Assembly (NCBI RefSeq): GCF_003264115.1
Contig: NZ_CP021912.1
Span: 1-64,000 of the forward strand
Direction of reading: 5' to 3'
DNA from: Erythrobacter sp. KY5
GTDB lineage: Bacteria > Pseudomonadota > Alphaproteobacteria > Sphingomonadales > Sphingomonadaceae
DNA: 64,000 nt
The notes beneath the pieces were generated by a model that was not told the DNA's origin, ran no database searches, and was given only the letters and a program-made list of their open reading frames with translations. Of this stretch, positions 4,157-60,693 are shown piece after piece; the stretch's first letter is position 1; each line of letters starts with the position of its first letter. The position numbers were made by a program, and so were the translations under genes.

Positions 4157-4209
4157 TGTCTGTCTCCCTCAATCTCTCGATTCGCTTCACAAAGCGAAGA
4201 ATCACGCGT

Positions 4210-4923: not shown

Positions 4924-4967
4924 GTGGCCGGAATGTTTACCAAATCGGCTTACCACGCAAGGCCAGT

Positions 4968-6824: not shown

Positions 6825-6882
6825 CAGTTGACGCCCTCACCCCCGTTACGAGGCCGCAGCTTACGCAGACGAGGACGGATCG

Positions 6883-7611: not shown

Positions 7612-7643
7612 TCCGCGCCGGCACGATAGAGGGGAAGCAAATA

Positions 7644-8816: not shown

Positions 8817-8826
8817 CCTCAAGGGT

Positions 8827-9477: not shown

Positions 9478-9522
9478 TAGCCTCTAGATCGGGGCGGTAG
9501 GCAAATCTGAAAGGATACCTGA

Positions 9523-9954: not shown

Positions 9955-9963
9955 GCCAACAAA

Positions 9964-23171: not shown

Positions 23172-23409
23172 GCTCCATGGAGTAACCTTGCCGGGGTTCA
23201 GGAAGTGCCAAGGTTTATGCTTGCGAAGTCCTTTCGCATTCAAACCTATGTAACGAACAAGCTTCTGTTTATAATTGACAATCCCATTTGCGGCGTTCGC
23301 TGCGTAAGCGTGCGAGACTTACGGGTGTTAACCGGCCCATGCCTCTCGACAAAGGCGCTCAAGCCATCCAAAAGGCCCCCAGGTGCACCGTGTAAACTGG
23401 GGGTCGTTC

Positions 23410-24251
23410 GTGGTCGCGCTTGTCCAAACCGTTGCTTATCTCGGGCTTGAAGCCCGCAAGGTCGAAGTCCAGTGCCAGGTGGCCCCGGGACTGCCGCGCT
23501 TTTCTATCGTGGGCCTGCCCGACAAGGCGGTGAGCGAGAGCCGTGAACGCGTACAGGCAGCGCTTTCGGCGATGGGGCTGGCGATGCCGCCCAAGCGGAT
23601 CACGATTAACCTTTCACCCGCTGACCTGCCCAAAGACGGCTCGCATTTCGACCTCCCCATTGCGCTTGCATTGCTGGCGGCGATGGGTGTGACCGATGCC
23701 GAACAGCTCGGCGACTGGATCGCGGTTGGAGAACTCTCGCTCGACGGACGCGTGGTCGCATCGCCCGGCGTTCTGATCGCCGCGCTCCATGCAAGCAGTC
23801 AGGAATGCGGGCTTATCTGCCCCGCGAGCCAGGGCGCCGAGGCCAAATGGGCGAGCGGCGTGCCAGTGCTCGCCCCGCGCGATCTTGCATCCTTGCTCGG
23901 TCACCTGAAAGGCACGCAGGTTCTCGCAGAGCCGACACGCGGCGAAGTGGAAGAGGCGCCAGCCGTCACCGATCTCAAGCAGGTGAAGGGCCAGGAAACC
24001 GCCAAACGCGCGCTCGAAATCGCGGCGGCGGGAGGGCACAACCTGCTGATGATCGGGCCGCCGGGATCGGGCAAAAGCCTGCTCGCCTCCTGCCTTCCCG
24101 GCATTCTTCCCGAACTCTCGCCATCCGAGGCGCTCGAAGTGTCGATGGTGCAGTCGGTCGCCGGGCTGCTCGAGGCAGGACGCATAAGCCGGGCGCGCCC
24201 ATTTCGCGCCCCGCACCATTCGGCGAGCATGGCAGCGCTGACAGGAGGGGG
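23410..24251 (+). pseudogene. comM: comM (YifB) 5' part, interrupted by the Tn7-like element
   Basis: ComM is a hexameric AAA+ Mg-chelatase-like helicase that promotes branch migration during natural transformation. This part encodes the N-terminal Lon-like domain (VQTVAYLGLEARKVEVQ) and the AAA+ Walker A GPPGSGKSL near residue 215, and stops at HHSASMAALTGGG, where the transposon begins. The open frame continues for 31 codons into the element and ends at 24345. The start is GTG at 23410, giving MVALVQT, the family N terminus. Walker B and the sensor region are in the 3' part at 62706, so this fragment cannot be a working ATPase. Confidence 0.95.
24247..24251. repeat. Left copy of 5-bp target-site duplication
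   Basis: GGGGG precedes the element's TGATAA terminus; the same five bases follow the right end at 62706-62710. One copy belongs to comM (codons GGA GGG GGC). A 5-bp duplication is the standard for Tn7-family insertion. Confidence 0.85.
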
Positions 24252-24497
24252 TGATAAAAGTCACGGCAAACGAGATTCCGTGTCAGGAACGGTGAGATTC
24301 TCACCCGTCATGGCAAAGCAACCTACGAAAAGCTATTCAATATAAGTAGCTTATTCGATCAGGCGGATTTCCGCAGATTTTCTTACCGAACAGCGGATTT
24401 AGCAATCTCGTCGAGCAATTTATCGCAACGCTGATGCTAATTCGGTCAAGGCAAAGCGTCGGCGGAAGCCTGGTCTTTCCATGAATTTTCGACCAGT
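24252..24497. repeat. Transposon left end with candidate TnsB-binding repeats
   Basis: Behind the TGATAA terminus are repeats beginning GTCA: 24260 (GTCACGGCAAACGA), 24282 (GTCAGGAACGGTGA), 24307 (GTCATGGCAAAGCA) and 24445 (GTCAAGGCAAAGCG). Three share GTCAnGGCAAAnC. Spacing of the first three is 22 and 25 bp, typical of TnsB sites in Tn7 ends. Positions 24291-24305 are also a palindrome (GGTGAG-ATT-CTCACC). I could not recognise clear matching repeats in the right end beyond the terminal six bases. Confidence 0.6.
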
Positions 24498-27380: not shown

Positions 27381-27773
27381 TCACTTCGAAAGGAAAGCCC
27401 TGATCCATCTCCAGAGGCGCTTCCACCAAGGCGCATTGCGATCTGCAAAATAGGCTTCACGCCGACGCTCTTCGCTACGCCTGCCGGCCAGAATTTCCTC
27501 TTCTGACCACGCTGGTGCCCAGACGACACCACCGTCGGTTATGAGGTAGTGCGATCTACACGGTTTCTGCCAATTCCCTATGGACGGGCGCAGGGTCGGC
27601 TCAGCGTCTGTACCTGTTAATTGCCATTCCGTTGGGAGCAAAGGGGTGCGAACTTTTTCGCCGCATCCGCAGGCGCAAAGATGCGCCGCAGTCTCGAACT
27701 CATCGGACACATACAAAATGCCTTCAAGCAGCTCGCTTGGCATGTAATGGACGCGTTCAACCCTAAAGCTCAT
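27381..27773 (-). CDS. DUF6527-like protein of the ubiquitin-like module
   Basis: A 130-aa protein with a probable metal site built from CACGCGEKV near residue 33 and a later CRSHYLITDGGVVWAP. It ends in a Trp- and Arg-rich amphipathic tail (WWKRLWRWIRAFL). I recognise the pattern as DUF6527, a family regularly found with ThiF-type E1 and multiubiquitin genes. Its start overlaps the E1 stop by 11 bp, which supports joint expression. A zinc-binding ligase-like or adaptor role is only a guess. Confidence 0.7.
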   Translation of the reverse strand: MSFRVERVHYMPSELLEGILYVSDEFETAAHLCACGCGEKVRTPLLPTEWQLTGTDAEPTLRPSIGNWQKPCRSHYLITDGGVVWAPAWSEEEILAGRRSEERRREAYFADRNAPWWKRLWRWIRAFLSK

Positions 27774-28956
27774 CGATATCGCTTTCGCTAACGACGCTCA
27801 GATCGGCGATTTCGAACAAGGCGTGCAAAACGGGCTCGTCAGAACGGTAGAAGCCGCGTAGCTGCTTATAGCGAATGACGGCAACGCATGCGTTGAGCGC
27901 ATTCAGTTCGCCAATCTGGATATTGTCACGATATAGGTTATCCGGCGCATCCTCGAGTTCCGCCAACCCTTTGCCTCTCAGCACTGCGGCCCGGTCGCTC
28001 GGAAAGAAAGTCGTGCGCATCATGCCGTTGATCGGCCCCTCATCCTTGCGCTTGAGTCCCATACCCACATCGATGAACGGAATCTCGAGTCCGATCAGCA
28101 GGTCGAAGATCTCTGCGCGAGCGCTGCCTTTATCAACGCAAACGAAAGCGAAAGTGACGCCAGCCAAGTCGTCAGCTGACGTGCTATCGATATAAAGCTT
28201 TTTGAGTGCGAGACCATTGCGGAAAGGCTCGTACCTCCGTTGGTAAACTTCAGCTTTAGGCAAGCCGAGCTCGTCCTTGCTCAATGGCCCAGGTGATCGA
28301 TAGGCATTGTGCACGTGAAACTCGTCGCCGTCGAAACCCACGATTTCCGGAATTCGGGCCTTCACCACGTAATCGAGCACATAGGAGCCAGTCCCACCAA
28401 GACCGATAATGGCAACTTTCTCGCCTTCAAAACCTTCATTAAGCTCGGCGATCCCCGCCCGGCTAGTTAGGGTGTCGTTGAGTTTGAAAATCAGGTCTTC
28501 GACCATTGTTTCATCTACGTTGAAGGTAAGGGCGGTGACATCATGCAATTCTGTCGCCGGCGCACTTATGATACGGACATAGCTCTCGATCTTTTCGAAG
28601 TTGTCCTTGAATGCTCCACTCCGCGGCTTGTTCGAAAAACGGCGTTCGACGACAACATCACCGTGCTGAGCTGAGAGAGCCACTGATGCGCGGCGGTCAT
28701 TGAGGTTGGGAATCGGCTTGCCATCGAGTCCATGCGGGGCCGATCCGGCAAAATACACCTGGTGATTATCTATCCGCATCCGCTCACCGTCGACCGCGAT
28801 CAGCTGCGCGACGATCGCTCCACTGCGGAGCTTCATGCCGGAACCCAGATATGGGATATCGCGGACGATCAAATAGCTTCGATCAAAAGAAACGGCGTAA
28901 CCTCGCTCGACGAGCCGAGCGAGGTCCGGATTACGACTGACCAGTTTCTGAAACAC
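27763..28956 (-). CDS. ThiF/E1-like adenylyltransferase with N-terminal DUF6791-type domain
   Basis: A 397-aa protein. Residues 1-150 form a domain that precedes ThiF in multiubiquitin loci (MFQKLVSRNPDLARL, VYFAGSAPHGLDGKPIP, FSNKPRSGAF). The E1-like adenylation domain follows, with the loop VAIIGLGGTGSYVLDYV at about residue 182, FDGDEFHVHNAYRSPG, and CVDKGSAR in place of the MoeB aspartate segment. It should activate the C terminus of the Ubl encoded just upstream. The best start is GTG at 28956, overlapping the Ubl stop by 26 bp; the ATG at 29031 would overlap it by 101 bp. The N-terminal domain has no cysteine, so it cannot be a thioester-forming E2. Confidence 0.8.
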   Translation of the reverse strand: MFQKLVSRNPDLARLVERGYAVSFDRSYLIVRDIPYLGSGMKLRSGAIVAQLIAVDGERMRIDNHQVYFAGSAPHGLDGKPIPNLNDRRASVALSAQHGDVVVERRFSNKPRSGAFKDNFEKIESYVRIISAPATELHDVTALTFNVDETMVEDLIFKLNDTLTSRAGIAELNEGFEGEKVAIIGLGGTGSYVLDYVVKARIPEIVGFDGDEFHVHNAYRSPGPLSKDELGLPKAEVYQRRYEPFRNGLALKKLYIDSTSADDLAGVTFAFVCVDKGSARAEIFDLLIGLEIPFIDVGMGLKRKDEGPINGMMRTTFFPSDRAAVLRGKGLAELEDAPDNLYRDNIQIGELNALNACVAVIRYKQLRGFYRSDEPVLHALFEIADLSVVSESDIDEL

Positions 28957-29191
28957 TGAAGCGCATCCCTTCTTTGACTTTGACAGACGCTCCAGGCGCC
29001 AGGGTGCCCTCAGGCTTATTGCCTTGACCACGCTTATAGGTGACTGAGTAGGTGATGGTGGAATTGGCCGTGTAGTTCGGCTCTTCCAACGTCACGACTT
29101 CGGCGTAGGAGATTTCCTTCTTCGGCCATTCGTGCGGTGTCCCTTCGACCACAATGGTGACCGATTTCGATTTTTCTTTGTCGTCTTTCAC
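28931..29191 (-). CDS. Single-domain multiubiquitin-type ubiquitin-like protein
   Basis: An 86-aa beta-grasp protein. The sequence VTIVVEGTPHEWPKKEISYA, VTLEEP, TYSVTYKRG, PEGTLAPG and VKVKEGMRFSV matches the layout of the prokaryotic multiubiquitin domain, here in one copy instead of tandem copies. It ends ETGQS, without a diglycine, so a modifier-style conjugation would need trimming or another chemistry. It is the first gene of the operon Ubl-E1-DUF6527. The promoter has a perfect TATAAT and a palindrome shared with the nuclease-helicase promoter. Confidence 0.75.
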   Translation of the reverse strand: MKDDKEKSKSVTIVVEGTPHEWPKKEISYAEVVTLEEPNYTANSTITYSVTYKRGQGNKPEGTLAPGASVKVKEGMRFSVSETGQS

Positions 29192-29273
29192 TTCGCTTTA
29201 CCTTCTCTGATGTCTTCCGCTTTTGCCGAGCGAAATTTGTCGTTTGCGACGGGTTTCTGACCGTCATTCGGAC

Positions 29274-29306
29274 ATTATAGAAGGCGGCCATGACAAAAGC
29301 TGTCAT
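29274..29306 (-). promoter_or_regulatory. Ubl operon promoter with palindromic operator
   Basis: Reading leftward, TATAAT occupies 29279-29274, and the perfect palindrome ATGACA-n5-TGTCAT lies at 29290-29306, 10 bp upstream and across the expected -35 position. The same palindrome, with 15 of 17 bases identical, lies at 32716-32732 in front of the nuclease-helicase and WYL regulator genes. This is the expected layout of a repressor site, and the WYL protein is the obvious candidate. Confidence 0.7.
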
Positions 29307-29341
29307 GCACCATTGCGAGTAGCGGATTATTTGGTGCGCGC

Positions 29342-32300
29342 CTAAAGCGGGCGTGTCTCAAAACGCTCTGCCAATAGACACAGCGTGTTGACCAACTTCA
29401 TTTCGTCGACAGAGCCCACTTTGATGTCGAGTAATGCAGGGTTTGCAATGACCTCAGCGCGAGCTTGCGCCCGGGAGATAGCTACGTTCAATCTGTTGAT
29501 TGAAAACAAGAAGTCTATCCCGCGAGGAATTTCCGCGCCACTCGATGTCGTCATCGAGACAAGACAAATCGGTCCCTCCTGCCCCTGGAAAAGATCGACA
29601 GTGCCCACTCGGACCTGCGGATCAAGTTGCTCCCGCAGCTGGTTTACCTGGGCGTTATACGGCGCGACGACGAGGATATCTTCATGGGCGATCACTCGGC
29701 TTTTTCCTTCGCGATTGACATAAGTCGCGCCGACCAGCGACCCAACCTTTTCTTGGATCCTCGCGATCTCTTCATGGCTTACTTGAGTGCAGCCCCTATG
29801 CTCCACGCTAGTGAGGATAGCGCCTGAAAGGTCATTTCCATCGGTCGAGAGCAAGCTCTGTGCTGCCGCGCCAGCATCGTTTGTCAGCTTCCCCTCATAA
29901 ACTGCGGTGGAGATGAAATCGCAGATCTCGGATCCCATTCGCCTGCTTACCGGGAGAAATATCCCACGTTCCTGTGGCACAACCCGGTATTGGCCAATCA
30001 AATACTCTAGGCTGGACAAACTGCTTTCACCGGGATGTGCACCTTGAAGCGGTTGCGGTAGCTGCATCGGATCGCCAACCAAGCATATGTTCTTCGCGCA
30101 TCTCGCCATGGCGAGTACATTTGCCAATGAGACCTGACCCGCTTCATCGATCATCAAATGATCGAACGGCATGTCGTCGTAGCGCGCGAAATGCCAAGCG
30201 GTCGACCCTACGATGTGCGCATTGCCAATTTCACCCGCCTTGTTGTCGGTGACCACCGTTATCATGGGATCATCTGGACCATCCGGGGGCGAGGAGACCT
30301 TCTGCACGATGTTGAAGTTTTTGCCTTTTTCTCGCGCTCGTTGTGCGACTGCAACGAGAAGATTGCCGATAGCGCGGTGGCTGTTCGAGGAAACTGCAAC
30401 ACGTTGGCCGGAGGCGCAGAGATCGACGATGGCGTTCGCACTAACATAGGTTTTGCCTGTACCAGGAGGCCCTTGGATCGCGATGGTCGTGTCGTTCATT
30501 GCCTGGATTGCCTGACTTGAACTTTCGACCACCTCGTTGTCTGGCGCTATGATCTGCGAGCCTTCGGCGCGGCCTGTCAGTTCGGGAAGCGATTTGGTCA
30601 GCAGAGTACGCACTGCGGAAAGAGCGGGATCATTCGCGATCAACCGGTCGATCACGTCCATGATTGCATTGCGGAGGATCTTATTTTGGAAGGGACGCGG
30701 CGGAATAAGGTCCAGCGTATCGGGCAGCGGTGGTTTGGATGATGAGCGCCGGATCGTGACCGTGCGCTGCTTCATATCCAAGGCCGTTATCCCGACATCC
30801 TCCGGCATGCTTTCCGGCTTGATACAGGGACGCTTGCCTTCACGAAGCTTCGTCTCTTGTTCTGGAAAGCGATAGGTTCGCTCAACCGAACGCGCGGTCA
30901 CTTTCTCAGCGGCGCCGATAGCCTCGAGCCCCTGCAAGCAATCGAGGTCATCGCGCAGTTCCTCGCTCTCCTGCGACAGTCGGTCGAAAATGGCCCAGTA
31001 TGCCGGCTTATCCTCTCTTTCATGAAAGCGGCTCAAATCGAAAAGTAGGGTCGCCACCGGTTCGCCCAGATTTTGCGCGAGTGGCTCGAGGCGTCTCTTC
31101 AAATCTTCATCTTCCTGTTGGTGCTCCGCCACTTTCTGGTCGGCGGCGTCGCTTGGCGCATCGCCCAGTTTGGGCCATGGCCTGTCGGGTCGCACCGCGC
31201 TCACAAGCCAGTCCAAGAGCAGCTGTGTCGAGATGCAATCAGTTCTGTTGTAGTCTTCGATCTTCTCGAGCAATGTGTCGTCTTGGTCGTTTCGCCATTG
31301 CTCGTAAAAGACCACGCTGGCACCGGCGGTGGAGACTTCGGCGTCGCGCTTCTCCATGTAAAAAGCTTCTAGATCCTTGATGGAATAACCATCTTCGGAC
31401 ACCACCATCGCACCCGATACGATGCGGTACAGATCGACGAAGCGTCGCTCTCGCTGCAACTGATCAAGCGGCGCTTCGCGCGTCCTGTGCACGGAGGTCA
31501 GCTTACGCAGAGCGGCAATCTCGTAGTTAGCGTAGTGGTAGATGTGTGCGTTCGGATATCGCGCCATGCGCTCCGACAGGAAATCGACCAACTGCCGAGC
31601 TGCGTCGCCTTCCTCCTCGCGATTATGCGCCCAAAACGCGCGAAAATGCCACTGGTCGTTGTCGCGAAACCAAAGCCCATGAAGGTATTCAAGTCCCCCG
31701 CCGGGATAGAACGGGTCGCCTTCAATATCGTAGAAAACATCGCCTTCGTCAGGTTCTGGAAGCAAATCAAAACCTCGACCAACCACTGGGTCTCGAAGCT
31801 CGAAAGTCGGTTCGCCTCCATCGCGGCGTTGCTGCTGGAGCTTCGCCTGGACCTGCAGTCTTGCTTGGGTCTCCTTTGCGAGTCTTGGGATTCGCCTGTC
31901 GTGAACCGCAAGCTCCTTCATTGTTTTCACGCCATCTGCGCGCGCCTTGTCTCGTTGCGAGCGCGTCATACCCGCAACAAGCGCAAGAGAATTCTCTTCT
32001 TCCCAGACGCTGCGACAATGAGACGCCCATCTACAGAGCGAGCAAGCGGGCACCGGTTCAGGATGTGTTTCCGGTCCCTCGTTGATGAAGCTTTCTAAGC
32101 GGCTGCGCGCACGCCTTGCATAAGCGCTGACTTCGGACAGACAAACTGAAAATCGCGAGCCGTCGCCCAGTTCTAGATGCGCAAGCTCCGGATGCACTCC
32201 CTGCATATCGGCAAGTAAGTCGCTGTAGAGGCAAAGCTGAAGCACATGCTTGGGATCGGGCTGACGCTTCAGCTTTGTATCGACCACCTCGTATGACCAG

Positions 32301-32680
32301 TCGCCGAGTTGTGAGGGACGATCGACACGCTCGAGGAAATCGGAATAGCCGCCCCACTGTTCACCAAGTATGGCACCTTGGAAAACAACATCTGCTCCGG
32401 ATCGCATTGCCGTGATTGTTGCATCGACGCATTCCGCGATGGGGCGATCATTGGTTTCAATCTCTACGACATTTGTCCCTTCACGTTTGAGGCGCTCAAG
32501 AAAGTCGAGTTCGTGCCGATCGCCCTGCTCTTGAAGGAGTTGCGCTTCCGGGTCGTCAGCTTTCGGCGATGGTCCCTCCCCGTTCAGATACGCCAAGTCC
32601 ATCGTCGTTGCATGTCGGCAACCTTGGAAGCGCATTAGGTCACTAGCGGAGAGGCGGATTTCGCCATCAATTCGTTGCAT
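29342..32680 (-). CDS. RecB-like nuclease/helicase fusion (TM0106-type)
   Basis: A 1112-aa protein combining nuclease and superfamily-1 helicase. The N-terminal RecB-type part runs from RLSASDLMRFQGCRHA through VVDTKLKRQPDPKHVLQL, then a cysteine cluster (ACSLCRWASHC). A DnaQ/RNase H-like region starts at FYDIEGDPFYPGGG. The helicase has GPPGTGKTYVSANAI near residue 740, LMIDEAGQVSLANVL, and late motifs VGTVDLFQGQE and NRLNVAISRA. The ATG at 32680 follows a strong AAAGGGG site. It is divergent from the WYL regulator and shares its operator with the Ubl operon downstream, so one defence regulon is likely. Confidence 0.85.
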   Translation of the reverse strand: MQRIDGEIRLSASDLMRFQGCRHATTMDLAYLNGEGPSPKADDPEAQLLQEQGDRHELDFLERLKREGTNVVEIETNDRPIAECVDATITAMRSGADVVFQGAILGEQWGGYSDFLERVDRPSQLGDWSYEVVDTKLKRQPDPKHVLQLCLYSDLLADMQGVHPELAHLELGDGSRFSVCLSEVSAYARRARSRLESFINEGPETHPEPVPACSLCRWASHCRSVWEEENSLALVAGMTRSQRDKARADGVKTMKELAVHDRRIPRLAKETQARLQVQAKLQQQRRDGGEPTFELRDPVVGRGFDLLPEPDEGDVFYDIEGDPFYPGGGLEYLHGLWFRDNDQWHFRAFWAHNREEEGDAARQLVDFLSERMARYPNAHIYHYANYEIAALRKLTSVHRTREAPLDQLQRERRFVDLYRIVSGAMVVSEDGYSIKDLEAFYMEKRDAEVSTAGASVVFYEQWRNDQDDTLLEKIEDYNRTDCISTQLLLDWLVSAVRPDRPWPKLGDAPSDAADQKVAEHQQEDEDLKRRLEPLAQNLGEPVATLLFDLSRFHEREDKPAYWAIFDRLSQESEELRDDLDCLQGLEAIGAAEKVTARSVERTYRFPEQETKLREGKRPCIKPESMPEDVGITALDMKQRTVTIRRSSSKPPLPDTLDLIPPRPFQNKILRNAIMDVIDRLIANDPALSAVRTLLTKSLPELTGRAEGSQIIAPDNEVVESSSQAIQAMNDTTIAIQGPPGTGKTYVSANAIVDLCASGQRVAVSSNSHRAIGNLLVAVAQRAREKGKNFNIVQKVSSPPDGPDDPMITVVTDNKAGEIGNAHIVGSTAWHFARYDDMPFDHLMIDEAGQVSLANVLAMARCAKNICLVGDPMQLPQPLQGAHPGESSLSSLEYLIGQYRVVPQERGIFLPVSRRMGSEICDFISTAVYEGKLTNDAGAAAQSLLSTDGNDLSGAILTSVEHRGCTQVSHEEIARIQEKVGSLVGATYVNREGKSRVIAHEDILVVAPYNAQVNQLREQLDPQVRVGTVDLFQGQEGPICLVSMTTSSGAEIPRGIDFLFSINRLNVAISRAQARAEVIANPALLDIKVGSVDEMKLVNTLCLLAERFETRPL

Positions 32681-32715
32681 TGGAATTCCCCTTTCCTGCC
32701 GTGTAGATGAAATGC

Positions 32716-32732
32716 ACGACAAAATCTGTCAT
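32716..32732. promoter_or_regulatory. Shared operator between nuclease-helicase and WYL regulator
   Basis: ACGACA-n5-TGTCAT, matching the Ubl operon operator in 15 of 17 positions, including two further bases (GC) to the right. It sits in the 61-bp gap between the divergent start codons 32680 and 32742, so bound protein would affect both directions. Confidence 0.65.
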
Positions 32733-32741
32733 GCTTGCTCC

Positions 32742-33734
32742 ATGTCATTTTCAAAAGCCGTTGATCTGCTTCGTCTTGCCATGCTGGCCACTCGCCGAAC
32801 AGGCATCTCCCTTGAAGAGATAGTCGAGGAATTCGAGTGCCATTACAGGACGGCACAGCGCTGGACCGATGCGCTCATGGAAACATTTCCGCAGGCTTAC
32901 TTCGAGGATTTGGACGACCGAAAGCGGCGTTGGTTTATGCCGCCAAGCGTTTTGGCACCATTGCTCACTCCCAGTCCTGAAGAATTAGCAGCGCTAAATC
33001 TTGCAATTTTGAATTTCGATCAGGATGGGCAATCCGAGCAGAAACGCACCCTTACCAACTTGCAGCAGAAAATTCAGGCCCTCACCCCGCCCGACAGCCG
33101 CGCCAGACTCGCTGTAGATCAAGAAATTCTGCTCGAAGCGGTCGGATACGCTGCAAGACCGGGACCGCGCCCTGTTGCCGATGCCAAGATCGATGAAGCG
33201 ATATCGGAAGCGCTCAAGGGACCATTCCGTCTCCGAGCAATCTATCGAAGAAGACAAGCAGAATCCCCGCGCGAACGCGTTCTCGAGCCCTACGGAGTCC
33301 TGTTGGGAACCCGGCGCTATCTTGTGGCAAGGGATGTCAAAAAAGGCCGGAATGCCCCTTTCCAGCACTATCGTATCGAAGCGTTTCTGGAGGCCGAGGC
33401 CCTTCCCGAAACGTTCATCGCTGATCCGAATTTCGAACTGACCGCACATGCGCAAAAGGGATTTGGGTCCTATGAAAGTGCGGACGAATTTGGAGATGTC
33501 GTCTGGCGCTTCTCACCTGCGGCCGCCGACCATGCGGCACGTTTTGTCTTTCATCCGACCCAAGAAACGGAACGAGAGAGCGATGGCTCTTTGCTCGTCC
33601 GATTTCGTGCCTCTGGCCATCTCGAAATGTGCTGGTTTCTCTATGCTTGGGGGCAAGAAGTGCAGGTACTGCAACCGCCTGCTCTTAGGGAACTCGTGCA
33701 TGACTTTCGTCGTGATTTTCCCGCGCTCCCTTAG
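32742..33734 (+). CDS. WYL-domain transcriptional regulator
   Basis: A 330-aa regulator. The N-terminal winged helix-turn-helix (SKAVDLLRLAMLATRRTGIS to HYRTAQRWTDAL) is followed by the WYL domain from about residue 135, with RAIYRRRQAESPRERVLEPY, YLVARD and FQHYRIEAF, and the C-terminal WCX extension. WYL repressors of this type (BrxR, CapW) control phage-defence operons in other bacteria. The ATG at 32742 is chosen over 32712, since the latter would start inside the operator. Confidence 0.88.
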   Translation: MSFSKAVDLLRLAMLATRRTGISLEEIVEEFECHYRTAQRWTDALMETFPQAYFEDLDDRKRRWFMPPSVLAPLLTPSPEELAALNLAILNFDQDGQSEQKRTLTNLQQKIQALTPPDSRARLAVDQEILLEAVGYAARPGPRPVADAKIDEAISEALKGPFRLRAIYRRRQAESPRERVLEPYGVLLGTRRYLVARDVKKGRNAPFQHYRIEAFLEAEALPETFIADPNFELTAHAQKGFGSYESADEFGDVVWRFSPAAADHAARFVFHPTQETERESDGSLLVRFRASGHLEMCWFLYAWGQEVQVLQPPALRELVHDFRRDFPALP

Positions 33735-33918: not shown

Positions 33919-36546
33919 CTATCGCTGATCTAGCATTATTCGGTTTCCGACCACATGCCGAAAAGCCTTCGCACGGCAAGTGAGCAAGATGACTTGCATT
34001 CGTTCCGAAGCTTCAAGCAGAATGTCGGTCATAACTTCCAAGCGTTCGTCGTCAGAATAGACGAACGGATCGTCGAGGATTAGCGAAACCGGGGCGCCTG
34101 TCTCGAGCAACAGGTCCGCAAAGGCCAAGCGCGTGAGAACCGCCAGCTGCTCCTGAGTTCCGCGGCTCAGATCGACGCAGGGTTCCTCCACTCCATTTCG
34201 GTGAATCGCGGTCAATCCCATCGTTTCGTCAAACGTGAGATCGCACTCGGGCAGTATGCGGTTCACATAGCGCGCCGCCCGCCGTGTCACCGGCCCCAAA
34301 AAAGTGCGCGAGGTATCCTCCGCCGCTTCACGCAGAGCGTCCCTCAACAGGGCCAGTACATCCGCCTCGCGCGTCCATCGTGCCACTTCCGCTTCCGCCA
34401 CGGCCTCGGCTTCGACCGCTTCCGCAAGAATGCCGGGCGGGCCTTTCGGACCTTCCCGCGCGACCAGGGACTCCAAGGAAGCGATGCGGGCCACGAGCTG
34501 AACCCGCTCTTCGCTCGCTTGGCGCTGGGCCACGTCGATGTTCGAGATCGCTCGCCGGATCCGATCGATATCGAGGTTGGCAACAGTAGCCTGCGCCTCC
34601 GAAAGCTGCGCCGCGCGCCGACCGAGTTCTTCGCGCGCCGTTTGAAACCGTTGGTCGATCGCGCTGCGTTCCTGGTCCGCTTGCTCATCGACGAGAGTTC
34701 GGGCTGTCGCCGCATTGTGTGTTGCTGCGACGTGGTTCGCCTCGAGCTTGGTGTGTGCAATCTCGGCGGCTCGAAGCGCCTTCTGGGCTTCGTCGAGGAC
34801 GGCCGCAGCGATCTCCTCGGCTTCGCGCATGCCATCGAACGCTGTCTCCAACTCTGACAGGTCGGCCGGCACCGCGCCAGCGTCGGCAGCGGCCGGCAGG
34901 CTTGCTATCAAGGCCTTAAGCGGCCCGACACCCGCCTTGAGTTCGAGCACCGGGTCGCCCGGACAACTCATCTCGATTTGGCGCTCGAGAGCAGCAATGT
35001 CCTGCTTGGCGGTCCGCGCAGTTTGATCGCGCGTCACGGCAGCTGCATAGCTGGCGACGCCAAGTTCGCCGAGTTCAGTCGAAAACGCCTCCTCGGCTGA
35101 GCGAAGCTGCGCTTCCGCCGATCTCGCTCCCGCCGGCGGGGAGATGCCGATCCGCGCGATGTCGGGAACGAGAACCTCGATCGGTTTGGCTACTTCGCGC
35201 CGGCCCGAGACGACATCCACGCCGTCGATCTGCACAGAGGCGGAGCCGACGAGATCGATATCGAGGGTTATCGCGCCCGCGGCCTGGACCGCGCGCGCTT
35301 CGGCGACGGCTCTGTCGAGTGCAGCCAGCTTCTGTAGTCGCTCATCTGCAATCAGGCCTTCTGCGAGCGGTCGCTTTTCGGCGAGCGCAGCTTCAAGCTT
35401 GAGAATCTCGGCAAGGTGCTCGCGCGCGCGCGCGATGGCGACTTGGCGGTTGTGTTCCACCATTGCCCGACGCGCCTGCTGGAGCTCCTGCTCCGCCTTC
35501 GCCCGCGCAGTGCGCGCTTGGGCGGCGGCCTCGCGCCTTTCCTGCTCGTCCGCCGCGACGGTTTCGAATTCGGTCTGATGATCCTCTACGGCCGCGCGTG
35601 CGTCCGCGAGCGCCTGCTCTGCGGCCTGCAGCCGCTGTGTCGCGTCATCGAGCCGGTTGAGTTCGGCTTGGGTCGCTTGCACCGTCGCTTCGGCTTCCGC
35701 GTGCCGGGCTTCCGCGGTTGAAAGGCGCAATTGCGCGTTCTCGGCCAGTTTGAGCTCGTCGGACAATTTCGCACGCCGTTCAGCCTGTTCGGGATCCGCG
35801 AGGTCGCGTTCAATCAAGCGCTTTCTCGTTTGCGCGCTCTCCAACTCCGCCAGCGAGTCCTGGTATTCAGACACCCTTTCCTGCGCTTCGGCCACGTCGA
35901 TCCGCGCCGCGGCCAGCTTGGCTTCGGCTTCCGCCATTTTGCCGGTGGGCTTTCCGGCGCGCAGTGTGCGCAATGCGCCATAGGATTCCTCGATCCGCTC
36001 GCAAATACGGTCGAATTTCTTGCCCCCGAGGATCGCCCCAACCTCGCCTTCGAGCGCCGCGCGGATCTCGTCGCGTGCGACCCGGCCCGGCGATTCGGCC
36101 GACAGGGCCGTGGCCTGTTCGACCCACAAGAGGCCGAGCACGCCGCGCGTGTCCAGGTCGCTGCCACGGTTATTGCCCCGTTCGAATCCGAGCAGTGCTT
36201 GCAGGCGCTCTTCGGCCGCGTCGCTCTCGATCCGGCTCCCGTTGCCGGTCAGCCGGATGTGCGGCGATTTGAGAAATTGCTTTTCGAGCTGCCAGTGCTG
36301 ATCGCCGATATCGAACGCCACGCCCACTCTGGGAGCCACGTCGTCGCCGAATGGGCAATAGGATCGAACCAGTTCGCTTTTCGCGGAGTGACGGATGAAG
36401 AAGGCGGCCCGCAGAGCCTCGAGCAGGGTCGATTTGCCCATCTCGTTCGGTTCGATGATGATGTTGAGCCCGTCGGCGAAGCCGTCCAGCCGGATCGGCT
36501 TTCGAAATTTGCGAAAGTTCTCCAACTCGAGCGAACGGAGTTTCAT
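33919..36546 (-). CDS. SbcC/YhaN-like SMC-type ATPase
   Basis: An 875-aa protein of the Rad50/SbcC superfamily. It begins MKLRSLELENFRKFRKPIRL with the P-loop EPNEMGKSTLLEAL near residue 33. Long coiled-coil segments rich in Ala, Glu, Arg and Gln follow, with a central break near residue 440. The C terminus has the ABC signature LSRGTQEQLAVL and Walker B VSLILDDPFVYSDDE. The start overlaps the metallophosphoesterase stop (ATGA), giving a Mre11-Rad50-like pair. It is the last gene of the SIR2-HerA operon. A 184-bp gap to the convergent WYL gene holds nothing recognisable. Confidence 0.88.
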   Translation of the reverse strand: MKLRSLELENFRKFRKPIRLDGFADGLNIIIEPNEMGKSTLLEALRAAFFIRHSAKSELVRSYCPFGDDVAPRVGVAFDIGDQHWQLEKQFLKSPHIRLTGNGSRIESDAAEERLQALLGFERGNNRGSDLDTRGVLGLLWVEQATALSAESPGRVARDEIRAALEGEVGAILGGKKFDRICERIEESYGALRTLRAGKPTGKMAEAEAKLAAARIDVAEAQERVSEYQDSLAELESAQTRKRLIERDLADPEQAERRAKLSDELKLAENAQLRLSTAEARHAEAEATVQATQAELNRLDDATQRLQAAEQALADARAAVEDHQTEFETVAADEQERREAAAQARTARAKAEQELQQARRAMVEHNRQVAIARAREHLAEILKLEAALAEKRPLAEGLIADERLQKLAALDRAVAEARAVQAAGAITLDIDLVGSASVQIDGVDVVSGRREVAKPIEVLVPDIARIGISPPAGARSAEAQLRSAEEAFSTELGELGVASYAAAVTRDQTARTAKQDIAALERQIEMSCPGDPVLELKAGVGPLKALIASLPAAADAGAVPADLSELETAFDGMREAEEIAAAVLDEAQKALRAAEIAHTKLEANHVAATHNAATARTLVDEQADQERSAIDQRFQTAREELGRRAAQLSEAQATVANLDIDRIRRAISNIDVAQRQASEERVQLVARIASLESLVAREGPKGPPGILAEAVEAEAVAEAEVARWTREADVLALLRDALREAAEDTSRTFLGPVTRRAARYVNRILPECDLTFDETMGLTAIHRNGVEEPCVDLSRGTQEQLAVLTRLAFADLLLETGAPVSLILDDPFVYSDDERLEVMTDILLEASERMQVILLTCRAKAFRHVVGNRIMLDQR

Positions 36547-37667
36547 GCCGGTTGCTCGTCCGCCAGCCGGAGCGCTTCTACGTAGAGTCGCTCGAGAGCG
36601 TTGCTCGCAAGTGCCGCGCCCTCCCCGCCGGCGTCCACCTGTGCTTGCAGGCTCGCGGCGGCCTTTGCCAGCGTTCCCTGCACGTCGATATTGGCAAGGT
36701 CATCCTGTGTCGGCCGAACCAGGAGCTGCTCGCTGTCGGCGTCCAGCCACCGCAGAGCGTGGGCGAGATCGTCGGTCAGCGTGGCTTGCATCTGGACCCG
36801 ATCGGACAGCGAGACGGCGCCGGTCAGGGTAAGCCGAAGCAAGGTTTTGGAGAGATCAGCTTCCTGTTTGAAGGCAATCACACGACGCACGAACTCCGCG
36901 TGATTTTCGAGCGGCCAGGTTTGGCTCAGCCAGCGGAACCGGCCGGTCGATACACGCTCGAGACGCGGTGCCACGCCCTGGGATATCTCGGCCACGATAA
37001 CGCTGCCCGGCTCGTCGTCGCCGCGGAAGCGATCGGTTTCTGGCGTACCGCTGTAAGCGGTCCTATCGTTGACCTGCAGATGACTGTGCCAATCGCCGAG
37101 CGCCAGATAGTCGAGTTGGGCGGTCTGCGCGCGGTCCGGCGGGATAATGTTGGTCGCTTCGCTGCTGCCGCCGAACTCGGTGATCGAGCCGTGCGCCAAC
37201 CCGATCCGGACCGCCCCGGCAGGCGTCGCCATATCGGCCAAATAGCTCGTCGGATCATCGCGTGTGCGGCGATGATCGAGCGGGGCAGGCAGCAGCCAGG
37301 CACCGTCCTCCAGTTCGACCGGCTCGAACGTATCGAGCACGTGGACATTGGCCGAAGCTTTCGCACGCACACGCCCCCACAATCCACCTGAACGAACATG
37401 GTCGTGATTGCCCGGCATGAGCCACCAGTGCACCTTCGCCCGCTCCATGCGGGAAAGGGCCTGCACCAGCACGCGATCGCCTGGGTCGATATTGTCGAAG
37501 ACATCGCCTGCGACGAGCACGTGGCGCGCTTCATGGTCATCGGCAACTGAGGCGATCCTATCGATGACGTCGAGCCGCGCCTCCATCAAGGCAACGCGAA
37601 CGTCATCGGGAAAACGACCGAAGGGCTTTCCCAATTGCCAGTCGGCGCTGTGCACAACCCGGATCAT
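36543..37667 (-). CDS. SbcD/Mre11-like metallophosphoesterase (YhaO-like)
   Basis: A 374-aa calcineurin-like phosphoesterase. Metal-binding motifs appear in the right order: VVHSADWQLGKPF, VAGDVFDN, PGNHDHV, and GDWHSHL. The first 240 residues form the catalytic domain and the rest matches the YhaO/SbcD capping region. It should act with the SbcC-like ATPase as a DNA-end nuclease. It lies 12 bp after the KTSC gene and overlaps the next by 4 bp. Confidence 0.88.
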   Translation of the reverse strand: MIRVVHSADWQLGKPFGRFPDDVRVALMEARLDVIDRIASVADDHEARHVLVAGDVFDNIDPGDRVLVQALSRMERAKVHWWLMPGNHDHVRSGGLWGRVRAKASANVHVLDTFEPVELEDGAWLLPAPLDHRRTRDDPTSYLADMATPAGAVRIGLAHGSITEFGGSSEATNIIPPDRAQTAQLDYLALGDWHSHLQVNDRTAYSGTPETDRFRGDDEPGSVIVAEISQGVAPRLERVSTGRFRWLSQTWPLENHAEFVRRVIAFKQEADLSKTLLRLTLTGAVSLSDRVQMQATLTDDLAHALRWLDADSEQLLVRPTQDDLANIDVQGTLAKAAASLQAQVDAGGEGAALASNALERLYVEALRLADEQPA

Positions 37668-37679
37668 CGGAAGAATCCG

Positions 37680-37892
37680 TCAGAGCCGCTCGTAGGCGTA
37701 GTGGTTCTTGACATTGGCATTCAGATAGACGCCGTGGGACGGCGCCGCCATGAGTTCGTCGTGTATATTCGGCGGCACGTTGAAGTATTGGTAGACGCTG
37801 TTGTTGAGGAACTCGACCTCCAGGGTTTGCGTCGCTTCATCGTAGCCGATGGACGCTAAGTTGCTCGAACTGACCGGTTGGCGTTGCATCAT
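37680..37892 (-). CDS. KTSC-domain protein
   Basis: A 70-aa protein consisting only of a KTSC domain: SSNLASIGYDEATQTLEVEF, VYQYFNVP and AAPSHGVYLNANVK. The domain name refers to conserved Lys, Thr, Ser and Cys residues; here the serine positions remain but Cys is absent. It is often found near RNA- or DNA-processing genes, with unknown role. Its start overlaps the HerA stop (ATGA), and AGGAG lies 5 nt upstream. Confidence 0.8.
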   Translation of the reverse strand: MMQRQPVSSSNLASIGYDEATQTLEVEFLNNSVYQYFNVPPNIHDELMAAPSHGVYLNANVKNHYAYERL

Positions 37893-39685
37893 CCGTTCTC
37901 CTGCGTGCTGTTGTCCTGACCCCACTTGGGATCCTGTGACCTCCAGGCGGCGGCGAGCCGCTCATAATCTTCTTTCGCTTTGGCCTTCGCCCAAGCCGCG
38001 CTTACCACGGGATCCGCACTCGACGGTCGCTCACCTTCCGGTGGCAAGTTGATCCGGCAGCGGATCGGCAGTCGCGCGGCCTCACCCATGATGATCGCCT
38101 CCCCGGTCCTCAGCACCGGAAGGGTATCGACGAGTCCGCTGAGGCTGTCCGGGAGAGCCGCCTTCACCTTGCCCTGGTCGGCGTTGTTCGACAGGCGCAG
38201 GGCGAACTGCGTACCGCACTGCGACAGGATCGTTTCGTCGATCTCTGAAGGGCGCTGGCTGACGATCATCGCCCCTACACCGAACTTGCGCCCCTCTTTG
38301 ACGATTCGTTGGACCATGTCGCGCGCGGGATTATCCGCGTCCCGGCCAAGATAGCGATGTGCCTCTTCCATGACGACCAGTTCCGGCCGGTTGCGACCAC
38401 CCTCGGGCAGGTTCCGGCCCCAGAACATCGCTTCGTAGGTGATGTTCAGGATTCCACCGATCAGCCGAACCAGAACCTGGCTCGGCACCCCCGACAGATC
38501 GAGCACGGTGATCGGCTTGTCGTGACCGAACCATGCCTCGAGCAGCTCCGGCAAATCCATCGGAGACTTGCCCGCAAGATCGGGCTCCCACTCGCCCGGG
38601 TGCAGCATGAAGTCATATTGCCGGTCGAGCAGGCGCGAACGCATCTGGGTAAGGTGCCGCTTGATACCCAGCACATTGGTCTGGTTGATATCGGGCAAGG
38701 CACTACCTGGACCCGGCGGCGAATATTTTGGCAGCTTCAGAGTTTGCGCATCGCCTGCCTCCTCAAGCGCCGGGTTGGTCCGCTCCTTGTCTGCCCAAGT
38801 CTTGTATTCGGGATCGACCAGGTCTGCCCAGAGCTGCCTCAGGCTGAAGGGTAGCGGTGTGTTGATGGTCAGGGCATTGACATCGACTCCGGCAACGCCG
38901 TCGGCCACCGCAAGCTTGGCCGCCTGAATTTTGTCGAGCACGCCGGTCAGAGCCGTCTCGCTCATTGGCCCCATCAGGAAATCGAGCAGCGTCAGCGTGT
39001 CGAGCGCCCAATACGGTACGTGAAGCGCCTGCTCGTCATCGGATGGGTTGACCCGGAACACCTGCGCCACCGATTTGAGCGCATCGCCATATTCGCCATG
39101 AATGTCGAGAAGAAGGATACGCGCGCTCGAGCAACGCTTTCCTCCGCCGGAATGGCAAATCGAACGCAGCAAGCTGGCAATCGTTGTCGATTTGCCAGAC
39201 CCGGTCGAGCCGAGAACTGCGCTGTGCCGGGTCACCAACCGGTCGAGATCGATGCGGACGGGAATGCTCTCCGCCCCGGCGAGCCGCCCGATCGTGATCT
39301 GGCCCTCGTCGCCCACACCATAGATCCGGCCGAGATCGTCTTCGGTTACCAGGTGGACCTCATCGTTAATCCCGGGGTATTGGCTGATCCCCCGCTCGAA
39401 ACTGGTTTCGACGATTTCACCGACGAGTTGAACGGTCATCCAGCTCTCGCCGCGTTGACGGGCGTCGACCAGTGTTTCGGGAGTGGCTTGGGCGCCAACC
39501 TCAGAAATTACGCCATACAAATCGTGGTAACCTTGGGGTATCCGGACGAAGCTCCCCACTTGCGCGACCCGATAGCTGCGTCCTTCGATGATGGCGATAC
39601 CCGATGCGACGGACTCGGCTTGCCGCACGCTCACCGTCGAGCCGGCGACGCTGCCTACCCTGCCAAGGAAGGTGGGGCTAGTCAT
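37889..39685 (-). CDS. herA: HerA-like FtsK-superfamily ATPase/DNA translocase
   Basis: A 598-aa protein with an N-terminal HAS-barrel (residues 1-110; LGRVGSVAGSTVSVRQ) and a RecA-like motor: Walker A GSTGSGKSTTIASLL near residue 185, ILLLDIHGEYGDAL, Walker B ELVVMEEAHRYLG near 440, and the sensor SQRPSEIDETILSQCGTQ. HerA forms hexamers that translocate DNA. In SIR2-HerA defence, the HerA hexamer binds SIR2 to make an NAD+-depleting complex. ATGA overlap with the upstream sir2 supports this pairing. Confidence 0.9.
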   Translation of the reverse strand: MTSPTFLGRVGSVAGSTVSVRQAESVASGIAIIEGRSYRVAQVGSFVRIPQGYHDLYGVISEVGAQATPETLVDARQRGESWMTVQLVGEIVETSFERGISQYPGINDEVHLVTEDDLGRIYGVGDEGQITIGRLAGAESIPVRIDLDRLVTRHSAVLGSTGSGKSTTIASLLRSICHSGGGKRCSSARILLLDIHGEYGDALKSVAQVFRVNPSDDEQALHVPYWALDTLTLLDFLMGPMSETALTGVLDKIQAAKLAVADGVAGVDVNALTINTPLPFSLRQLWADLVDPEYKTWADKERTNPALEEAGDAQTLKLPKYSPPGPGSALPDINQTNVLGIKRHLTQMRSRLLDRQYDFMLHPGEWEPDLAGKSPMDLPELLEAWFGHDKPITVLDLSGVPSQVLVRLIGGILNITYEAMFWGRNLPEGGRNRPELVVMEEAHRYLGRDADNPARDMVQRIVKEGRKFGVGAMIVSQRPSEIDETILSQCGTQFALRLSNNADQGKVKAALPDSLSGLVDTLPVLRTGEAIIMGEAARLPIRCRINLPPEGERPSSADPVVSAAWAKAKAKEDYERLAAAWRSQDPKWGQDNSTQENG

Positions 39686-40902
39686 TCGGCGGCCGCAGGC
39701 GCAGGCGGCGTTGCCGGAGCCTGGGCAGCCTCGAAGGCCTGCGGCGTCTGGGAATTGGCAAAGAACCGTGCAAAATCTTCAATTGCCCCAAGCTTAAATT
39801 CCGGATTGGCTCCATTGTCGGGTGCTGCCCAATAGCTATTCCGGATCGGCCCCCAATCCTTGGTGGGCAGCTCGCCTGGAGTCTGCCAAGGGGCCGCAAC
39901 GCCGTTGATGATCGCCTTGTCGCGCGCGTAGACGCTAACATTTGGGCGCCGGGACGCAAGCGCGACAGCACAGGGTTCTTGATCGAGTTTTTGGAATTGG
40001 AACGCGAACACGCTCGCTGCCGGATTGGCGGCGAGCGCCTCGTCAATACGGGCGGTGATATGCGCATCTGCATAAGAGAAGCCGATAGAGATCAGCAGGG
40101 TGTCCTCAGTCGCAAGGAAGCTGCGCAAGCGATCTAGCAACGCAGCATAGGGCGCCTTTTGCGTCTGATCGTATTTCATGTGCTCGGGAAAGATCAGGTG
40201 TGTCGCATCCGTCTGCCCCGTACGTACGACTTCGCCATCTGCGTTTGCTTTCCAGCCCAGCGAACCGTGGATCTTCCATAGGCGCGTCCAGCGCGCGGAC
40301 AACTGGTCTCCAGAAACCGACGCCGGATCGAAAAACGCTTCGCGTGCTCCGGCGAAGCCATCGAAATAGGGCGCCCGGACCCGCTCGAAAGCTTCCTCGA
40401 AAAGAAGGTCATAGTTGGTCGTGAAGATTTCGACCGCATGCGTTCTGGGCGCGCCCGTGATCCAGCTGACAAGTTCTCCGTACGCCGTCGTCCCGGCCGG
40501 AAGGCGCGCCTGGACTATTTTCCCTATTTCGACGCAGATGGCATCAGCCATTGCGCGATATCCACCGGCATCGAGGTCATGAACCTTCGTGGTTCCGATA
40601 ACGCTGCCGAGCGAACGAATGCGTGAAAGCAAAGTTTCGATATCGTGCTTTTCGAGATCGCCCCGGAGTCCCTTGATCTGGGTTCCGTAGGTTTGTTCGA
40701 TCGCTTTCAACACCAAATCGGTCAGGCCCGCGACGGCCGGGATCAACGGTCGAGTCCCATCGGGCCGCGCCATTCCCGCCGGCGCGCCAGCTCCCACCAG
40801 TAGACCGACACGCTTCCGGCCCTGCGCGATAATCGTACGCAGCGATGCCATATACTGGTCCGGATTGTGAAAACTGACGCTCAATTCCCTCACCTCAAGC
40901 AT
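39682..40902 (-). CDS. SIR2-domain protein, candidate antiphage NADase
   Basis: A 406-aa SIR2-fold protein. It has VGLLVGAGAPAG (NAD-binding loop) near residue 33, EIFTTNYDLLFEEAF near 158 with the conserved Asn-Tyr-Asp, LWKIHGSLGW with the catalytic histidine, and SIGFSYADAHI. The zinc ribbon of deacylases is missing, as in defence SIR2 NADases (ThsA, SIR2-HerA, DSR2). It heads the operon sir2-herA-KTSC-SbcD-SbcC; four of the five genes overlap or nearly touch. The C terminus is a low-complexity Ala/Pro tail. Confidence 0.88.
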   Translation of the reverse strand: MLEVRELSVSFHNPDQYMASLRTIIAQGRKRVGLLVGAGAPAGMARPDGTRPLIPAVAGLTDLVLKAIEQTYGTQIKGLRGDLEKHDIETLLSRIRSLGSVIGTTKVHDLDAGGYRAMADAICVEIGKIVQARLPAGTTAYGELVSWITGAPRTHAVEIFTTNYDLLFEEAFERVRAPYFDGFAGAREAFFDPASVSGDQLSARWTRLWKIHGSLGWKANADGEVVRTGQTDATHLIFPEHMKYDQTQKAPYAALLDRLRSFLATEDTLLISIGFSYADAHITARIDEALAANPAASVFAFQFQKLDQEPCAVALASRRPNVSVYARDKAIINGVAAPWQTPGELPTKDWGPIRNSYWAAPDNGANPEFKLGAIEDFARFFANSQTPQAFEAAQAPATPPAPAAAE

Positions 40903-48031: not shown

Positions 48032-49195
48032 ATGAAACGTAACTATCTTATCGCAATAGTCGGCATCCTTGTTCTGGCGGCCGTATCTGCTTGGGCCTTC
48101 TGGCCGTCAGGGTCTGCCGACCACTCCGAAGAAGGACAGAGCGAAGAGGAAGGCGGAGCAAAAACCGACGGTTCCGAAGGCGCTTTGCAAATTAGCGAAG
48201 AGCAAATCGCGGCTTCCTCCATCGAAATCGAAGCTGTTCAGTTTGGTGCTGTTACAGAGATCGTATTCTCCGCAACTGTCGCAGCCGCGCCCAACGCGAG
48301 CGCGCGAATCGATGCACGTGCCTCGGGGGTCGTGCAGAGCGTGAACAAGATGCTTGGCGATTATGTCAGGCAGGGGGAGGTGATCGCGCTGATCGAGAGC
48401 GCTGATGCTGCCGGACTGGCTGCGCAGGTCGCTACCGCGCGTGCGCGGGTCAATGAACTGTCTGCGCTCTACGACCGCGAAAAGCGGCTGTTCGAGGCCA
48501 ATGTGACGGCCCGGCAGGATCTCGAAGCGGCGCGGGCCAATCTGCAAGTGGCAAGATCGGAGCTGTCACGCGCACAAGCCGCATCCGCAGCTGCTGGTGT
48601 CAGCGGGGATGGACGTTCGCTGGCCGTGACGAGTCCGATTTCAGGGCAGATCACCAGCGCGCCGATCGTGCTCGGCTCCTACGTATCCGCTGGTGACGAA
48701 ATGTTCCAGATCGTGAACGCGAGCGGCTTGCAGGTGCAGGTCGCCTTGCCTGCCAGCGATGCTGCGAGAATTCGGCCGGGCGATGAAGCTACGTTGGAGC
48801 TCGGGCAGGACAGGGAGATCGGCGGACGTGTGCGCTCGATAACCCCCGCGCTCGATCCGGAAAGCCGAAGCGCCACCGCAGTTATTTCGCTCGCTGGAGC
48901 GGTCCCCGGATTGCAGCCAGGCGCATTCTTGCAGGCGCGCATCCGACCCTCAGGTGAAACCGATGCGACCTCGATCTCGGTGCCTGAATCCGCAGTTCAG
49001 ATGGTCGAAGGCCGTGAAGTCGTGTTCGTTCGCACGCGTACCGGCTTTCGGGCGACGCCTGTCGTGACGGGATCGCGCTCTGGAGGGCGCATCGTGATCG
49101 AGTCCGGATTGCAGAATGGCCAGCGGATCGCGACCGAAAACGCTTTCCTGCTCAAAGCCGAACTCGGAAAAGAGGAAGCCGAACATGGACATTGA
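48032..49195 (+). CDS. czcB: CzcB-type periplasmic adaptor
   Basis: A 387-aa membrane-fusion protein. It has an N-terminal anchor (YLIAIVGILVLAAVSAWAF), an acidic linker, the lipoyl/hairpin region starting ARASGVVQSVNKMLGDYVRQ, and beta-barrel domains around SPISGQITSAPIVLGSYVSA. I prefer the ATG at 48032; a GTG at 48017 overlapping the czcC stop is the alternative. czcA starts inside the end of this gene. Confidence 0.9.
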   Translation: MKRNYLIAIVGILVLAAVSAWAFWPSGSADHSEEGQSEEEGGAKTDGSEGALQISEEQIAASSIEIEAVQFGAVTEIVFSATVAAAPNASARIDARASGVVQSVNKMLGDYVRQGEVIALIESADAAGLAAQVATARARVNELSALYDREKRLFEANVTARQDLEAARANLQVARSELSRAQAASAAAGVSGDGRSLAVTSPISGQITSAPIVLGSYVSAGDEMFQIVNASGLQVQVALPASDAARIRPGDEATLELGQDREIGGRVRSITPALDPESRSATAVISLAGAVPGLQPGAFLQARIRPSGETDATSISVPESAVQMVEGREVVFVRTRTGFRATPVVTGSRSGGRIVIESGLQNGQRIATENAFLLKAELGKEEAEHGH

Positions 49196-60481: not shown

Positions 60482-60559
60482 TTTAACGTACTCCATCTTT
60501 GAGAAAGTGGAGCACGAACCGGAAAGATGCGCGCGATCCTCGCCAGACGCGAGCGTTCG

Positions 60560-60571: not shown

Positions 60572-60618
60572 GGCGGCTTTTCGGAGACAACGAGAGTGTT
60601 GAGGGATCTCGTATCCCG

Positions 60619-60650: not shown

Positions 60651-60693
60651 CCGTTTCGTGCTTATCGAGTTTTGATTGCAGGCATTCTTTTTC

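What the first reader, a model, noticed from the sequence alone, without database searches (positions are those of the whole stretch)
27381..33734. Ubl-E1-DUF6527 module, nuclease-helicase and WYL regulator joined by a shared operator
Two promoters 3.4 kb apart carry nearly the same 17-bp palindrome (15 of 17 identical), the first overlapping a -35 region next to a perfect TATAAT. The WYL gene is divergent from one of them. This ties a ubiquitin-like pathway and a RecB-like helicase/nuclease into one controlled regulon, which suggests a single multi-gene defence system instead of two neighbours.
Basis: partly seen in the sequence, partly recalled or inferred. Interest (0 to 1): 0.85.

Follow-up and report, generated by a model that had tools for sequence, protein, structure and literature searches.

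The report
ssDNA-triggered switch for swappable immune genes
A regulator related to a known DNA-damage sensor appears to switch on, through two matching DNA sites, both a DNA-cutting helicase and a ubiquitin-like protein-tagging operon; related loci keep the switch and the helicase but carry other immune genes in the tagging operon's place.

Summary
In detail: the two palindromes (29289-29308, 32715-32734) are the only exact matches to their shared 17-mer in the 3.31 Mb genome. The constant unit is the divergent WYL/TM0106 helicase-nuclease pair; 12 of 12 close loci, window included, keep the pair and an operator between the genes. Ubl-E1-DUF6527 is separable: it follows the helicase in 4 of the 12, and lies without the helicase in 13 other loci examined. 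CBASS, a methyltransferase or RmuC follow the helicase in other loci. A site at the helicase 3' end, where such cargo begins, is conserved in 11 of 12, in 9 of them degenerate. The WYL protein matches Caulobacter DriD, an ssDNA-activated activator, over its length. The operator has DriD's GAC-N7-GTC core, its overlap with the -35 region and, by my reading, its 12-nt distance to the -10. Best reading: a DriD-like activator cassette driving a helicase-nuclease and an exchangeable immune operon. Activation, ssDNA sensing and defence are inferred, not shown.

The parts
32715..32734 (.). operator 2, core GACAAAATCTGTC (32718-32730), between helicase and WYL starts
   Evidence: counterpart in 12 of 12 close loci
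29289..29308 (.). operator 1, core GACAAAAGCTGTC (29292-29304), in the 150-bp gap between helicase and Ubl
   Evidence: site at the helicase 3' end in 11 of 12 close loci
29274..29279 (-). TATAAT -10 of the Ubl operon, 12 nt after operator 1
   Evidence: read from sequence
32742..33734 (+). DriD-like WYL regulator, 330 aa (ORF could start at 32712)
   Evidence: Pfam WYL, WCX; PDB match to DriD, E 7e-46; 34% identity in my alignment
29342..32680 (-). TM0106-type RecB-like nuclease + RNase_H_2 + SF1 helicase, 1112 aa
   Evidence: nuclease and helicase motifs conserved across 21 homologues
28931..29191 (-). ubiquitin-like protein (Multi_ubiq), 86 aa, GTG start
27763..28959 (-). E1-like protein, DUF6791 + ThiF; the open ORF reaches 29031, start near 28959 judged from annotated Rhizobium starts
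27381..27773 (-). DUF6527, small Cys-rich protein (CACGCG...PCRSH), possibly metal-binding

Best explanation
A DriD-like, ssDNA-responsive transcription activator (WYL) divergent from a helicase-nuclease binds two operators of the same type. One sits at the -35 region of the helicase promoter, the other at the -35 region of the promoter of the Ubl-E1-DUF6527 operon. Phage attack or DNA damage makes ssDNA; ssDNA in the WYL domain frees the DNA-binding domains; the dimer anchors RNA polymerase at promoters that lack a good -35; helicase-nuclease and Ubl system are made together. The helicase-nuclease (Dna2-like layout) would process damaged or invading DNA, and could add ssDNA signal; the E1 would activate the Ubl for conjugation. 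Shown here: gene order, operator conservation, spacing, homology to DriD, conserved enzyme motifs. Inferred: binding, activation, ssDNA as ligand, Ubl conjugation, defence.
For: Only full-length PDB matches of the WYL protein are DriD chains (9pfq/9pfv/9pga, 8tp8/8tpk, E about 1e-45); DriD fragments follow; the sixth match up to E 1 is a ribosomal protein at E 0.63. DriD consensus ATACGAC-N7-GTCGTAT; sites here are GAC-N7-GTC, 10 of 13 identical to the driD site core GACCGTTTCTGTC; two remoter TM0106 loci (L162, L163) have that core letter for letter 39 and 24 nt before the helicase. DriD sites overlap the -35 at a fixed distance from the -10; the promoter letters in that paper give 12 nt in my reading, and 10 of 12 close helicase promoters have TA exactly 12 nt after GTC, as has operator 1 (TATAAT). 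DriD activates an operon divergent from driD, the same layout. Operator identity 0.90 against 0.48-0.55 in flanks over 9 non-redundant loci. Site of 15 bits or more at the helicase 3' end in 11 of 12, against 2 elsewhere in 262,649 bases. No other WYL relative in the genome at E 1e-3.
Against: No experiment. The perfect TATAAT at operator 1 is stronger than the poor -10s of DriD promoters, and G-14 of DriD promoters is absent at both window promoters; both fit a repressor too. In 9 of the 11 loci the 3' site is degenerate (TGAC for TGTC) and overlaps the helicase stop codon, so part of its conservation may be coding. The 12 loci are related and four are near-identical Rhizobium. The next clade (helicase 49-51% identical: L112, L127, L156, L173, L174, L175) lacks the GAC-N7-GTC site, although five of the six have a divergent WYL gene and L175 a partial one. 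The 12-nt figure for DriD is my reading; the figure was not held. Of the arginines of DriD's segment PRSWRLDRM only one is kept in the window protein (QHYRIEAF); whether they bind ssDNA was not established here.
Confidence: 0.6

Rival explanations
1. The WYL protein is a CapW/BrxR-like repressor: it sits on both operators, blocks RNA polymerase, and is released by ssDNA during infection. The set of genes controlled is the same.
For: CapW and BrxR repress defence operons from palindromes (passages); 219 of 544 Bub operons are linked to CapW or CapH+CapP (passage); the strong TATAAT of operator 1 would need repression; the operator lies just before the WYL start, fit for autorepression.
Against: No CapW or BrxR chain among PDB matches up to E 1, whereas DriD matches at 1e-45; CapW sites overlap the -10, here the centre is near -31; no consensus -35 at either promoter.
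Confidence: 0.25
2. Two neighbours: the helicase-WYL pair and the Ubl operon came together by island assembly, and the second operator is a chance or neutral leftover of the helicase's 3' end.
For: The Ubl module stands without the pair in 13 of 13 other E1 loci examined; five-gene loci are not one clade in the helicase tree (3 changes, 85 of 500 shuffles as low) or the WYL tree (3 changes, 94 of 500); the site is degenerate in 9 loci.
Against: The E1s of the four five-gene loci group together (support 77/91, 78% of bootstrap trees, 0 of 500 shuffles as low); operator 1 is full-strength and 34 nt beyond the helicase stop, with -10 at the fixed spacing; L111 independently has a full operator before RmuC; Phenylobacterium pA has another Ubl operon (Ubl-E2-E1-DUF6527-ClpP-like) running into a TM0106 helicase.
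Confidence: 0.15

Closest known systems
DriD regulon, Caulobacter crescentus (WYL activator; PMC12340889, passages and section 6)
   Same: full-length homology, GAC-N7-GTC operator, operator over the -35, my 12-nt reading to the -10, divergent gene layout
   Different: 34% identity; here the targets are a helicase-nuclease and an immune-type operon inside a mobile island, not didA, bapE, recJ or a TonB-transporter operon
Bub operons with CapW or CapH+CapP (PMC13373217, passages)
   Same: Ubl-E1 operon under a damage-sensing regulator; WYL-type control of Bub operons is already reported
   Different: no E2 gene in the window operon; the WYL protein is DriD-like and lies beyond the helicase; whether this Ubl-E1-DUF6527 type was among the 544 operons I could not check (papers not held)
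BrxR of pEFER (PMC9122601, passages)
   Same: one WYL regulator, two operator boxes within one defence island
   Different: repressor, 11-bp repeats with a 5-bp gap; not matched by sequence here
TM0106 RecB-like nuclease family (TIGR03491) / Mokosh MkoA, MkoC helicases
   Same: TIGR03491 match 295 bits over cut-off 97; helicase part matches MkoA at 1e-41
   Different: no Mokosh partner proteins seen; only the helicase region matches

Membership tests
DriD-type homodimeric WYL activators | wHTH-3HB-WYL-WCX protein homologous to DriD over its length | tested here: met
DriD-type homodimeric WYL activators | pseudo-palindromic GAC-N7-GTC target site | tested here: met
   (sequence only, no binding)
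DriD-type homodimeric WYL activators | site over the -35 at fixed distance from a -10 | tested here: met
   10 of 12 helicase promoters TA after exactly 12 nt; L109 CA; L111 13 nt
DriD-type homodimeric WYL activators | ssDNA-dependent activation of transcription | not testable with these tools
   needs reporter and binding assays
CapW/BrxR repressors | sequence relationship to CapW or BrxR | tested here: not met
   none among PDB matches up to E 1; phmmer with one sequence, so remote kinship is not excluded
CapW/BrxR repressors | CapW sites overlap the -10 | tested here: not met
   centre near -31
Bub (bacterial ubiquitination-like) operons | Ubl and E1 genes in one operon | tested here: met
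   Multi_ubiq and ThiF overlap; ThiF part matches Citrobacter BubCD at E 7e-5
Bub (bacterial ubiquitination-like) operons | E2 and a specific protease (one review says 'in some cases complete') | tested here: not met
   no E2 or JAB/protease gene in the window operon by Pfam; DUF6791 and DUF6527 roles unknown
Bub (bacterial ubiquitination-like) operons | protein conjugation | not testable with these tools
   Ubl ends TGQS, no GG; no invariant Cys in the 16-row E1 alignment

The most novel reading that the evidence does not exclude
A portable induction cassette: a DriD-like ssDNA-sensing activator, a helicase-nuclease that may itself feed the ssDNA signal, and a second operator at the helicase's 3' end that works as a landing slot, putting whatever immune operon arrives (Ubl conjugation, two kinds of CBASS, a methyltransferase system, RmuC) under one DNA-damage trigger. 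Immune modules would thus be swapped without losing their wiring.
Probability: 0.4. Interest if true: 0.78.

Novelty: new variant of a known kind. Interest (0 to 1): 0.62.

Why it matters
WYL control of immune operons is known mainly as repression by CapW/BrxR. Here a DriD-type activator seems to do it, and it ties a TM0106 helicase-nuclease, for which the one search by that name found no relevant paper, to ubiquitin-like and CBASS modules. If the 3' site is a real promoter, it explains how immune genes can be exchanged within islands while staying under one ssDNA trigger, and it gives the TM0106 family a testable role in phage response.

Tried and rejected
Operator as part of an SbcDC or SIR2-HerA regulon in the window: no site of 15 bits or more other than the two, so the SIR2-HerA-KTSC-SbcD-SbcC operon is left out, although L154 has a full operator 54 nt before SbcD and L126 one before an annotated DNA repair exonuclease. 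Small ORF after the helicase in L109, L154, L155 as a Ubl: no Pfam match to Multi_ubiq, and hhalign against the Ubls gave probability 0.1; rejected. Viral contigs: no relatives of helicase or E1. Genome contigs: one relative of E1 only. Order of G060: 1 of 43 genomes, G060 itself. PafBC RecA-NDp motif recalled as a lead; the passages read give no letters for it, so it is not used. No structure prediction and no fold search were run. Terminator-like hit at operator 2 is the palindrome itself; 9 found against 8.1 expected in shuffles.

Rows dropped: the tree used 21 helicases, 21 WYLs and 16 E1s, picked by me from the fetched loci; L110's helicase (two overlapping ORFs) and 23 other remote helicases were left out of the helicase tree. 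Of 8 plasmid records at 60-80% helicase identity I examined 7; the eighth was not listed. Of 117 E1 plasmid records I examined 9, and of 198 helicase records 15.

Full report
Observation. The shared 17-mer is exact at only these two places in the whole genome. The operator 1 core is followed by 12 nt and TATAAT; operator 2 by 12 nt and TACACG. No -35 consensus is found at either.

Genes. DUF6527; E1-like DUF6791+ThiF; Multi_ubiq; TM0106 nuclease + RNase_H_2 + SF1 helicase; WYL+WCX. PD-(D/E)xK-like, DEDD-like and Walker motifs are largely invariant across 21 helicases (motif names recalled). The Ubl ends TGQS, and the conservation line over 16 E1s shows no invariant cysteine, so the conjugation chemistry, if any, is not the textbook thioester relay; no E2 is present in the window operon.

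Relatives. Of 385 genomes of the class, 7 have an E1 match below 1e-50 and 9 a helicase match below 1e-180, the window's genome included in both; of 296 of the order, 23 have a helicase match below 1e-100. Plasmids: 117 records match the E1, 198 the helicase. Twelve close helicase loci (58-65% identity, and the window) all have a divergent WYL gene and one GACA-N5-TGTC site 37-40 nt before the helicase; operator identity is 0.90 against 0.48-0.55 in the flanks over 9 non-redundant loci. Over all 43 helicase loci, GAC-N7-GTC lies within 110 nt upstream in 22: 12 of 12 close, 1 of 8 at 46-55%, 9 of 23 below 46%; random stretches of the same loci 3.3%. Sequences are related, so these are not independent trials. 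The middle clade with a divergent WYL but no such site speaks against a universal operator; L112 and L156 have a different palindrome (TGTCA-N5-TGACA).

What follows the helicase. Ubl-E1-DUF6527 in the window and in three Rhizobium plasmids, with a 49-50 bp gap there and rmuC behind. In L111 the helicase is followed directly by RmuC, behind a full operator. In Shinella Teo12 (L107): TRIP13, HORMA, CD-NTase and NucC, the parts of a type III CBASS. In G674 (L155): a 2TM effector and a CD-NTase. In R. leguminosarum 31B (L108): a cytosine methyltransferase and further genes. L109, L153, L154 have no assigned cargo; L110 has a different Ubl-E2-E1 operon on the other strand, beyond a gap of about 1.1 kb. 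A site scoring 15 bits or more, with a matrix built only from the promoter sites, lies at the helicase 3' end in 11 of 12 loci; elsewhere in these loci there are 2 such hits in 262,649 bases, one of them before SbcD of L154. In 9 of the 11 the site overlaps the stop codon and reads TGAC for TGTC; only the window and L111 have the full form.

The Ubl module elsewhere. In 13 other E1 loci there is no helicase or WYL of this kind in the fetched stretch and no GACA-N5-TGTC in the 400 bp upstream. Regulators beside it: HTH plus Peptidase_M78 in L038, L039, L040 by Pfam and in L123, L124 by annotation; the peptidase alone named in L042 and L121; one ORF with HTH_3 and a sub-threshold M78 match in L010; HigA in L120; a GntR gene in L125; L122 looks like L039 by eye; none named in L041, L043. 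This resembles CapH+CapP control of Bub operons (passages), so the module seems able to exchange regulators.

History. The E1s of the four five-gene loci form one group (77/91; 78% of bootstrap trees; 0 of 500 shuffles as low). In the helicase and WYL trees the five-gene label needs 3 changes, no better than many shuffles (85 and 94 of 500). R. leguminosarum 31B has a WYL-helicase pair next to that of NZLR1 but no Ubl module. One old gain with losses, or repeated gain from one E1 lineage, fit equally.

Mechanism. The WYL protein is a DriD relative. DriD is an ssDNA-activated activator that overlaps the -35 and activates an operon divergent from its own gene (one preprint, passages and section 6). 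By homology and promoter geometry I favour activation of both window promoters. The strong TATAAT at operator 1 and missing G-14 keep repression open.

Literature. DUF6527: 0 papers. TM0106: 2 papers, both on corrosion. WYL with RecB-like, helicase and divergent: 0 papers. Searches showed no paper on this locus among those listed. The two Bub papers are not held, so whether they mention this arrangement is unknown.

Noticed in passing
window 23383-24345 and 63069-63344: comM/yifB is split: ChlI and Mg_chelatase domains at one end, the genome's only Mg_chelatase_C match at the other; about 38.7 kb of island lies between.
   Followed up: partly
window 56824-62592: TniQ, TniB, a Mu-transpos_C transposase and a TnsA-like endonuclease: a Tn7-like module that may have brought the island into comM.
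   Followed up: partly
window 33919-40902, minus strand: SIR2-HerA-KTSC-SbcD-SbcC genes in a row; SIR2 and HerA match PADLOC models at 1e-194 and 1e-158, and a 71% SIR2 relative lies near the five genes in R. etli 8C-3.
   Followed up: partly
L128 (Phenylobacterium LH3H17 pA) 3618-10351: Ubl, E2, E1, DUF6527 and a ClpP-like gene run into a TM0106 helicase on one strand: a second, different link between Ubl operons and this helicase.
   Followed up: partly
L162 10446, L163 10377: Upstream of remoter TM0106 helicases the core of the Caulobacter driD site occurs letter for letter.
   Followed up: partly
L154 5348, L126 5838: Full palindromic operators before SbcD and before an annotated DNA repair exonuclease, so the regulon may reach SbcCD-like pairs in other strains.
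   Followed up: partly
L040 5337, L168 1177: Strong operator-like sites (22.7 and 25.8 bits) away from any helicase-WYL pair.
   Followed up: no
L109 11384-11653, L154 10383-10643, L155 10366-10653: A small conserved protein of unknown kind directly behind the helicase; no Pfam family.
   Followed up: partly
window 49116-52448: AcrB-type RND efflux pump among other efflux-like genes in the island.
   Followed up: no
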